From contig NZ_KZ859518.1 in NCBI RefSeq assembly GCF_003382685.1, forward strand, positions 7,925 to 40,696: a DNA stretch of 32,772 nt, given 5' to 3'. Source of the stretch: Halorussus litoreus. GTDB lineage: Archaea; Halobacteriota; Halobacteria; Halobacteriales; Haladaptataceae. The notes beneath the pieces are model-generated. The model saw nothing but the letters and a program-made list of their open reading frames with translations. It was not told the origin of the DNA and did no database searches. Position numbers and translations under genes: made by a program. Every line of letters begins with the position of its first letter. Within the stretch, counting starts at the first letter, position 1. Below, one piece after another: positions 16,403 through 18,168 of this stretch.

Positions 16403-16500
16403 TTCGGGCAGCGCGGGAGCCACTCCCTTATTTCCCGAGAGTATCGATCTGAATCAACGCTATCCTCGGGACGGCTTTCGGTCCGGGCCAATCCCGGCAG

Positions 16501-16509
16501 TTTTTATTA
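16501..16509 (+). promoter_or_regulatory. Likely promoter of the RNase J operon
   Basis: TTTTTATTA is the only strong AT box before the operon. It would start transcription near 16530 and leave a leader of about 280 nt before the ATG at 16816. Confidence 0.55.
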
Positions 16510-16529
16510 CCGGGACGCGTAACCCCCGC

Positions 16530-16815
16530 ATAGACCGATAGCTCGCGGGGCGTGGCTCGCGCCACCGGGCGGTCCCACCGACGGCTGCAAGACGCCGGGG
16601 TCGGGACCGCGACGCCGCGAGCAGGTTTAGGTACGTACGGACGCCACGGGACGTGGCACGCTCGTTGGGCGGTAGCGCGGCTCTGCCGTGGAAATGTAGC
16701 GCGGCTTTGCCGCGGAAGTGCGGCGCGGTTCTACCGCTGCCGACTGACGCGGAACTGCCACGGAACGCGATGTGGCACGCTACGGAACGTGGCTTTGCGT
16801 ACACAAGGAGAAACT
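16530..16815 (+). promoter_or_regulatory. Long structured 5' leader of RNase J
   Basis: The leader holds GCCACG-GGA-CGTGGC (16643-16657), then three units with an exact 24-bp period (16675, 16699, 16723). Each unit has a hairpin: CGGC-TCT-GCCG, CGCGGC-TTT-GCCGCG and GCGGT-TCT-ACCGC. The third swaps a C-G pair for T-A. GCCAC...GTGGC follows at 16757-16776. A Shine-Dalgarno AAGGAG (16805-16810) sits five bases before the ATG. Most genes here are leaderless, so this leader stands out. It is a candidate site for control or self-cleavage by RNase J. Confidence 0.55.
16805..16810 (+). promoter_or_regulatory. Shine-Dalgarno site of RNase J
   Basis: AAGGAG lies five bases before the ATG at 16816. 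It fixes this start, although the frame remains open upstream to 16552. Confidence 0.75.
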
Positions 16816-18168
16816 ATGGAAATCGAAATTGCAACCATTGGCGGATACGAAGAAGTCGGGCGGCAGTGTACAGCGGTTCGTGCGGGCGAAGACGTGGTCA
16901 TCTTCGACATGGGGCTGAACCTCTCGAAGGTGCTGCTCCACGACAACGTCGAGACCGAGAAGCTCCACAGTCTGGACCTCATCGACATGGGGGCCATCCC
17001 GGACGACCGCGTGATGAGCGACCTCGAAGGCGACGTACAGGCCATCGTGCCGACCCACGGTCACCTCGACCACATCGGCGCGATCAGCAAACTGGCCCAT
17101 CGGTACGACGCGCCGATCGTCGCCTCGCCGTTCACCATCGAACTGGTGAAACAGCAGATCGAGGGCGAGCAGAAGTTCGGCGTCGAGAACGATCTCGTGA
17201 AGATGGAAGCCGGCGAGACGATGACCATCGGCGACACGGGGCAGGTCGAACTGGAGTTCGTCAACGTGACCCACTCCATCATCGACGCCATCAACCCGGT
17301 GCTCCACACGCCCGAGGGCGCGGTCGTCTACGGCCTCGACAAGCGGATGGACCACACCCCCGTCCTCGGCGATCCCATCGACATGAAGCGGTTCCGCGAG
17401 ATCGGCCGCGAGGGCGAGGGCGTGCTGGCGTACATCGAGGACTGCACCAACGCGGGCCGGAAGGGCCGCACGCCGAGCGAGTCGGTGGCGCGTCGCCACC
17501 TCGAAGACGTGATGACCTCGGTCGAGGACTACGACGGCGGCATCGTGGCGACGACGTTCTCCAGCCACATCGCCCGCGTGAAGAGCCTCGTCGAGTTCGC
17601 GCAGGACATCGGCCGCGAGCCCGTCCTGCTCGGCCGGTCGATGGAGAAGTACTCGGGCACCGCCGAGCGGCTCGACTTCGTCGACTTCCCGGAGAACATG
17701 GGGATGTTCGGCCACCGCAAGTCGGTCGACCGCACGTTCAAGCGGATCATGAAGGAGGGCAAGGAGAACTACCTCCCCATCGTCACGGGCCACCAGGGCG
17801 AGCCGCGCGCGATGCTCACCCGGATGGGTCGGGGCGAGACGCCCTACGACCTCGAGAACGGCGACAAGGTCATCTTCTCGGCGCGGGTCATCCCCGAGCC
17901 GACCAACGAGGGCCAGCGCTACCAGTCCGAACGCCTCCTGAAGATGCAGGGCGCGCGCATCTACGACGACGTCCACGTCTCGGGCCACCTCCGCGAGGAG
18001 GGCCACTACGAGATGCTCGACGCGCTCCAGCCCCAGAACGTCATCCCGGCCCACCAGGACATGAAGGGCTTCGCACCGTACGTGAACCTCTGTGAGAGTC
18101 AGGGGTACGAGCTGGGCCGAGACCTCCACGTCACGAACAACGGGAACATCATCCAACTGGTCGAGTGA
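16816..18168 (+). CDS. rnj: Ribonuclease J (beta-CASP 5'-3' exoribonuclease)
   Basis: This 450-residue cytoplasmic nuclease belongs to the metallo-beta-lactamase/beta-CASP family. The zinc motif is T80-H81-G-H83-L-D85-H86, followed by [11 protein letters not shown] and [14 protein letters not shown] (beta-CASP motifs) and a C-terminal [14 protein letters not shown] and PAHQD. Archaeal RNase J degrades RNA 5' to 3' and prefers monophosphorylated ends, so it is central to mRNA decay. The protein lacks the N-terminal KH domains of the archaeal CPSF/aCPSF1 type, which separates it from that group. The start is fixed by a Shine-Dalgarno site. The polyprenyl synthase gene begins four bases after its stop, showing an operon. 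Confidence 0.93.

What the first reader, a model, noticed from the sequence alone, without database searches (positions are those of the whole stretch)
16530..16815. RNase J mRNA has a long leader with 24-bp-phased hairpins and a Shine-Dalgarno site
Most genes in this window look leaderless, but the gene for the main 5'-3' RNA-decay nuclease seems to have a leader of about 280 nt. It holds three hairpins at an exact 24-bp period, with a compensating C-G to T-A change. Bacterial RNase E controls its own mRNA through its 5' leader; a similar feedback by archaeal RNase J is plausible, as stacked hairpins can block 5'-3' decay.
Basis: partly seen in the sequence, partly recalled or inferred. Interest (0 to 1): 0.65.

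Follow-up and report, generated by a model that had tools for sequence, protein, structure and literature searches.

The report
Folded leader on haloarchaeal RNase J mRNA
The messenger RNA for RNase J, an essential RNA-destroying enzyme of salt-loving archaea, begins with a long folded leader that has been conserved across most of these organisms and is probably a control switch, possibly one through which the enzyme limits its own production; the three phased hairpins that drew attention are a species-variable decoration on it.

Summary
The window is from a Halorussus species. The gene at 16816-18168 is RNase J. Its upstream region is a real, conserved, structured 5' leader of about 285 nt. 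Conservation among 17 Halorussus genomes jumps from background (27-28% identity) to 91% at the TATA box (16501-16509) and stays high in the leader. No TATA-like box lies near the ATG in any of 97 relatives. The leader folds into an enclosed multi-branch domain (P1-P3, core motif GACGGCUGCAAGACGCC) and a helix P4 ending 13 nt before the ATG. In Halorussus 96% of pair cells are intact and 11 pairs change on both sides; in Natrialbaceae the figures are 96% and 14. Exact copies of the core motif occur once per genome in 35 of 146 haloarchaeal genomes; all 20 examined lie directly upstream of RNase J. No Rfam family matches. The three 24-bp-phased hairpins exist, but they sit in a variable expansion (0 to 6 units among 17 Halorussus) at the tip of P4 and are not the conserved part. 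Haloarcula-type species and RNase J paralogues carry unrelated long leaders. Feedback control of RNase J through the leader is the likeliest function (about 0.45) but is untested.

The parts
16489..16511 (+). promoter of rnj: conserved BRE/TATA block, TATA at 16501-16509; predicted start 16530-16533
   Evidence: 0.91 mean pairwise identity among 17 Halorussus against 0.27-0.28 upstream; sequence
16531..16629 (+). enclosed 5' domain: P1 outer 16531-16536/16624-16629, P1 inner 16541-16547/16616-16622, P2 16552-16556/16561-16565, P3 16569-16585/16594-16610
   Evidence: covariation in A2; pairing probabilities; MFE z -3.38 for the whole leader
16580..16596 (+). core motif GACGGCUGCAAGACGCC (P3 apical loop), the most conserved stretch across genera
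   Evidence: alignment A1; motif search
16631..16802 (+). P4: lower helix 16631-16637/16796-16802, upper helix 16643-16648/16788-16793, capped by the variable array
   Evidence: covariation in A2; lower-helix pairing probability 0.85-0.86 except its top two pairs (0.75, 0.5), upper helix 0.99-1.0
16649..16787 (+). Halorussus-specific variable apical expansion of P4; holds the three 24-nt-phased hairpins (16676-16690, 16700-16714, 16724-16738)
16805..16810 (+). Shine-Dalgarno-like AAGGAG, 5 nt before the ATG
   Evidence: conserved as AAGGTGA in most Halorussus
16816..18168 (+). rnj, RNase J (450 aa)
   Evidence: TIGR00649 above cut-off, PF22505
18092..19231 (+). geranylfarnesyl diphosphate synthase ORF (true start probably further 3'), overlaps the end of rnj; probably on the same transcript
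   Evidence: NF040789 above cut-off; order rnj-ids kept in nearly all haloarchaeal loci examined

Best explanation
Shown by comparison: rnj of this Halorussus is preceded by a conserved, structured RNA leader of about 285 nt, part of a leader family spread through haloarchaea (Halorussus, Haladaptatus, Haloferacaceae-type genera, Natrialbaceae). An enclosed P1-P3 domain presents the core loop GCUGYAAGA, and a helix P4 ends 13-20 nt before the ATG. Inferred: the leader is a cis-acting control element for RNase J. Most likely it is a feedback sensor. RNase J, or its RecJ3/4-aRNase J complex, recognises or attacks the folded leader when it is in excess, and this lowers the stability or translation of its own mRNA; when RNase J is busy or scarce, the mRNA survives. 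The phased hairpins are a genus-specific, variable extension of P4 that could at most tune this.
For: Leader and promoter footprint. Covariation in Halorussus: 46 pairs, 96.4% of cells paired, 11 pairs changed on both sides, 33 such cells, 0 of 500 shuffles as high; slid controls 35-43% paired. Independent covariation in Natrialbaceae: 55 pairs, 96.0%, 14 pairs, 38 cells, 0 of 500. Whole-leader fold z -3.38, 0 of 200 shuffles as stable. Exclusive association: a model trained on Halorussus finds the Halorussus and Haladaptatus leaders at the rnj start; exact core motif once in each of 35 genomes, 20 of 20 fetched sites 63-183 nt upstream of the rnj ATG. Haloarcula-type genomes and RNase J paralogues carry different but conserved long leaders, which points to the gene rather than one ligand as the common factor. 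The paralogues examined lack the downstream prenyl synthase and still have a leader. rnj is essential in Haloferax, which lacks an exosome (PMC10470531), so dosage control is plausible. Precedent: E. coli rne and cyanobacterial rne autoregulate through long 5' UTRs (PMC10989929).
Against: No binding, cleavage, transcription-start or reporter data. The transcription start is inferred from the TATA box. The 5' end is no less accessible than in shuffled controls. The region just 5' of the ATG is predicted open (mean unpaired 0.72), so no direct masking of the ribosome site is seen. A leader tied to a single gene could equally be read by another protein or a ligand. The leader also precedes the co-transcribed prenyl synthase.
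Confidence: 0.45

Rival explanations
1. Control element read by something other than RNase J: a riboswitch-like aptamer or the binding site of another RNA-binding protein (for example an Lsm or ribosomal protein) that sets RNase J level with growth or stress.
For: Highly conserved unpaired loop GCUGYAAGA and multi-branch architecture; long conserved primary-sequence blocks.
Against: No Rfam riboswitch or leader family matches. All examined core-motif copies sit at rnj, one per genome. Other clades and paralogues use unrelated leaders for the same gene.
Confidence: 0.22
2. Constitutive element: the fold simply stabilises the mRNA or positions the ribosome, with no feedback.
For: Open region before the ATG, Shine-Dalgarno-like site in Halorussus and Haladaptatus, very stable core.
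Against: Covarying multi-helix architecture and an invariant loop over an order are more than stabilisation needs; the 5' end is not specially blocked.
Confidence: 0.17
3. The leader serves the downstream prenyl synthase (isoprenoid control), not RNase J.
For: The order rnj-ids is kept in nearly all haloarchaeal loci examined.
Against: Methanogens keep fni-rnj-ids with no such leader; the RNase J paralogues examined have no ids gene and still have a conserved long leader.
Confidence: 0.06
4. The region is mainly a free small RNA gene, processed from or ending before rnj.
For: Compact autonomous fold.
Against: No poly-T terminator: longest T-run 3 nt in the window leader and at most 4 in relatives. 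Distance to the ATG and the P4-to-ATG spacing are conserved.
Confidence: 0.08
5. Concerning the phased hairpins only: they are a neutral tandem expansion of palindromic units by slippage in a tolerant apical loop, with no function of their own.
For: 0-6 units among 17 Halorussus, start-to-start distances 18-33 nt, absent in three. A similar array lies at the 3' end of lysS in this genome. Two of three do not form in the full-length ensemble.
Against: Stems keep pairing while letters change (pair 3: 18 U-A, 9 C-G, 6 G-C among 41 candidate units). Template-switch repair of palindromes could also produce this.
Confidence: 0.65

Closest known systems
E. coli / Synechocystis rne 5' UTR (RNase E autoregulatory leader; rne5 in Rfam)
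   Same: Very long, structured 5' UTR on the mRNA of the main decay nuclease in an organism where other long leaders are rarer (PMC10989929).
   Different: No Rfam match, so no detectable sequence-structure relation. Different nuclease and domain of life. Feedback shown for rne, not here.
Halobacteria S15 ribosomal leader and other archaeal r-leaders (PMC7247131)
   Same: Covariation-supported leader of one gene in haloarchaea; same gene served by different structures in different clades.
   Different: Located at rpsO/recJ operons; this element is at rnj, and no Rfam family matches it.
[quoted passage not shown]
   Same: cis-acting leader RNA in an archaeon.
   Different: Ligand-defined class; no match here, no ligand known.
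5' stem-loops that hinder RNase J1 in Firmicutes, and exoribonuclease-resistant RNAs
   Same: Folded RNA in the path of a 5'-3' exonuclease (general knowledge; PMC5760640 for Xrn1-resistant RNA, abstract only).
   Different: No family match; resistance not tested; no unusual 5'-end blocking in the prediction.

Membership tests
Structured cis-regulatory 5' leader (general kind) | Lies between promoter and start codon of the gene | tested here: met
   Footprint: TATA block conserved about 315 nt before the ATG, no nearer TATA-like box in 97 relatives; the start itself is not measured
Structured cis-regulatory 5' leader (general kind) | Secondary structure supported by compensatory changes | tested here: met
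   partly in the Haloarcula-type leader
Structured cis-regulatory 5' leader (general kind) | Consistent association with one gene or pathway | tested here: met
Structured cis-regulatory 5' leader (general kind) | Changes expression of the downstream gene in response to a signal | not testable with these tools
   Needs reporter assays
rne5 (RNase E autoregulatory 5' UTR) | Match to the Rfam covariance model | tested here: not met
   No Rfam hit at gathering threshold; at E <= 5 only unrelated sub-threshold matches
rne5 (RNase E autoregulatory 5' UTR) | Encoded nuclease binds or cleaves the leader and lowers its own mRNA | not testable with these tools
   Biochemistry needed
Known riboswitch classes (Rfam) | Match to a riboswitch model | tested here: not met
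Transcription-attenuating leader (terminator type) | Poly-T terminator in the leader | tested here: not met
   Longest T-run 3 nt in all 17 Halorussus, at most 4 nt in any relative
Exoribonuclease-resistant RNA | Halts a 5'-3' exonuclease | not tested
   Needs in vitro decay assay with RNase J

The most novel reading that the evidence does not exclude
Haloarchaea control their essential decay nuclease RNase J through dedicated, nuclease-sensing mRNA leaders, and at least three unrelated leader types (Halorussus/Haloferax/Natrialba type, Haloarcula type, paralogue type) have arisen for the same gene. This would be an archaeal counterpart of rne autoregulation built from different RNAs.
Probability: 0.35. 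Interest if true: 0.8.

Novelty: new variant of a known kind. Interest (0 to 1): 0.62.

Why it matters
Few cis-regulatory RNAs are known in archaea (PMC7247131, PMC8241225), and Haloferax leaders were described as mostly absent or short, with structured leaders 'not typical' (PMC4983044). A structured leader kept through most haloarchaea on the gene of an essential decay enzyme, unknown to Rfam and not found in the literature searched, gives a concrete handle on how archaea set their RNA-decay capacity. It can be tested directly in Haloferax volcanii, where an RNase J depletion strain exists (PMC10470531).

Tried and rejected
Known RNA family: rejected. Specially blocked 5' terminus: rejected as stated (accessibility equals shuffles, p 0.92), though long-range pairing is in excess (0.52 against 0.33, p 3e-11) with an estimated start. 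Ribosome-site masking: not seen; the region before the ATG is predicted open. Transcription attenuation: no T-run. Upstream ORF in the leader: no positive evidence; ATG counts are at or below composition expectation. Genome-wide hairpin repeat family: double units are rare in the genus (4 of 18 genomes, control 0), found at rnj, at the lysS 3' end and a few other places. Element shared with methanogens: no, there rnj follows fni (type 2 IPP isomerase) in an operon. Literature searches found no description of the leader. The TSS table of the Haloferax dRNA-seq paper is a supplement and could not be read. An all-clade RNAalifold of the MAFFT alignment failed (few pairs) because variable inserts misalign; structures were therefore counted per clade.

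Full report
What the window is. The gene at 16816-18168 (+) is RNase J: it scores 412 bits against TIGR00649 (cut-off 400) and carries the RNase J beta-CASP domain. An ORF for geranylfarnesyl diphosphate synthase overlaps its end, and a CutA gene lies upstream on the other strand. The window is therefore a Halorussus (inference).

The observation. TTTTTATTA at 16501-16509 inside CAATCCCGGCAGTTTTTATTACC is the only promoter-like block. It predicts a start near 16530-16533 and a leader of about 285 nt. In 17 Halorussus genomes mean pairwise identity is 0.27-0.28 upstream, 0.91 over BRE/TATA, 0.76 over the next 20 nt and 0.67 over the following 30. Haladaptatus, Haloferax and Natrialbaceae behave alike, and none of 97 leaders has a second TATA-like box near the ATG. 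The three hairpins at 16676, 16700 and 16724 are exactly 24 nt apart, with a C-G to U-A change in the third. Exactly this spacing occurs in 0.15% of shuffles. AAGGAG lies 5 nt before the ATG.

What is really conserved. I aligned 15 Halorussus leaders with the variable array cut out (alignment A2). The consensus structure has 46 pairs. 96.4% of cells pair, 11 pairs change on both sides, 33 cells do so, and no shuffle of 500 reaches these values; sliding the partner by 1-3 columns drops pairing to 35-43%. The structure is: P1 outer (UAGACC/GGUUUA, starting at the predicted first nucleotides), P1 inner (GCUCGCG/CGCGAGC), a small hairpin P2, a long hairpin P3 with loop UGCAAGAC, and helix P4 (GUACGUA/UGCGUAC and GCCACG/CGUGGC) ending 13 nt before the ATG. 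The single-sequence fold of the uncut window leader recovers the same helices, with probabilities 0.84-1.0 for P1 and P3, about 0.7 for P2, 0.85-0.86 for P4 lower except its top two pairs (0.75 and 0.5), and 0.99-1.0 for P4 upper. Its energy is -146.8 kcal/mol against -129.9 for shuffles, z -3.38. Related sequences can inflate the shuffle test, and the structure was derived from the same alignment; the slid control and the second clade below address this in part.

Second, independent clade. In 19 Natrialbaceae leaders (A3) a 55-pair structure has 96.0% of cells paired, 14 pairs changed on both sides, 38 such cells, 0 of 500 shuffles; slid controls 34-42%. The distal P1 pairing CCGCGG/CCGCGG there never varies, so it is not proven. 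A local alternative (CCCGC/GCGGG) exists and scores lower. Sequence blocks shared by all these clades are GACGnGCUGYAAGACGCCGGGG and, flanking P4, UUUCnGUGAG and GGCUUUCA.

Distribution. A covariance model built from Halorussus finds the leader upstream of rnj in Halorussus and Haladaptatus with strong scores and weakly in other genera. The core motif, exact, occurs once in each of 35 of 146 haloarchaeal genomes; all 20 exact sites fetched lie 63-183 nt upstream of the rnj ATG. Haloarcula, Halosimplex, Halomarina and relatives have a different leader (GUAACCGAG at the start, CUCGG near the ATG) in which the first hairpin covaries (14 cells) and CCGAG/CUCGG is invariant in 22 of 22. Second RNase J copies in some Halorussus and in a Natrinema-like genome carry a third conserved leader. 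In methanogen outgroups rnj follows the type 2 IPP isomerase gene closely, within 0-165 nt, with no such leader. rnj and the prenyl synthase remain adjacent in nearly all haloarchaeal loci examined.

The phased hairpins. Among 17 Halorussus the tip of P4 holds 0 (three genomes) to 6 hairpins of at least 6 bp, with start-to-start distances of 18-33 nt. Stems keep pairing while letters vary. In the whole-leader ensemble, hairpins 1 and 2 of the window are disfavoured because units pair with each other. A similar array overlaps the 3' end of lysS in the same genome. The array is thus a recent, variable addition.

Mechanism. Shown: conserved structured leader with its core motif found only at rnj among the sites examined. 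Inferred: it controls RNase J. Feedback is my first choice because the gene, not a pathway, is the common factor across three unrelated leader types; because the RNase J copies without the prenyl synthase still have a leader; because rnj is essential in an organism without an exosome (PMC10470531); and because long 5' UTRs of rne do this in bacteria (PMC10989929). Against specific sub-models: the 5' end is not specially occluded (0.467 unpaired against 0.463 in shuffles), although it pairs at long range more than shuffles (0.52 against 0.33, p 3e-11); the ribosome site is predicted open; there is no terminator-like T-run. Hence control of mRNA decay or of ribosome loading by a protein bound to the fold is likelier than classical sequestration or attenuation.

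Known or new. No Rfam family matches at gathering threshold in the window or eight relatives, nor credibly at E up to 5 in four leaders. Searches of the open literature found no report of this leader. Haloferax work states that structured leaders are not typical of haloarchaea (PMC4983044), and only a handful of archaeal cis-regulatory RNAs are known (PMC7247131; PMC8241225). I therefore rate it a new RNA family within a known kind. Confidence that the conserved structured leader exists is about 0.95; that it acts by RNase J feedback about 0.45.

Noticed in passing
L002 about 1440-1600 (own genome, contig C13 near 56978-57071); also L147: Tandem GC-rich hairpins of 24-25 bp overlap the stop codon and 3' end of the lysyl-tRNA synthetase gene in this genome. 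A similar double hairpin in another Halorussus (L147) looks like the same place, not checked.
   Followed up: partly
L208, L209, L210, L212, L213 (300 nt before the ATG): RNase J paralogues (81-84% identical) have a conserved long leader of another type, starting near TAACCGAAAGAYGCGC and ending GGAYTGCTATGATCGGC just before the ATG.
   Followed up: partly
L090, L103, L122 and other Haloarcula-type leaders: A late segment GCCGGTCGC resembles the 5' strand of the first hairpin and could compete for its 3' strand, suggesting alternative folds.
   Followed up: no
L194-L202: In methanogens rnj sits between the type 2 IPP isomerase gene and a prenyl synthase gene, so haloarchaea appear to have cut rnj-ids loose and given it its own promoter and leader.
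   Followed up: partly
L109 1803-2003: The Haloplanus MAG leader carries a tandem duplication of the core motif region (GACGTGCCGTGAGACGCCGG ... GACGTGCCGTGAGCAGCCGG).
   Followed up: no
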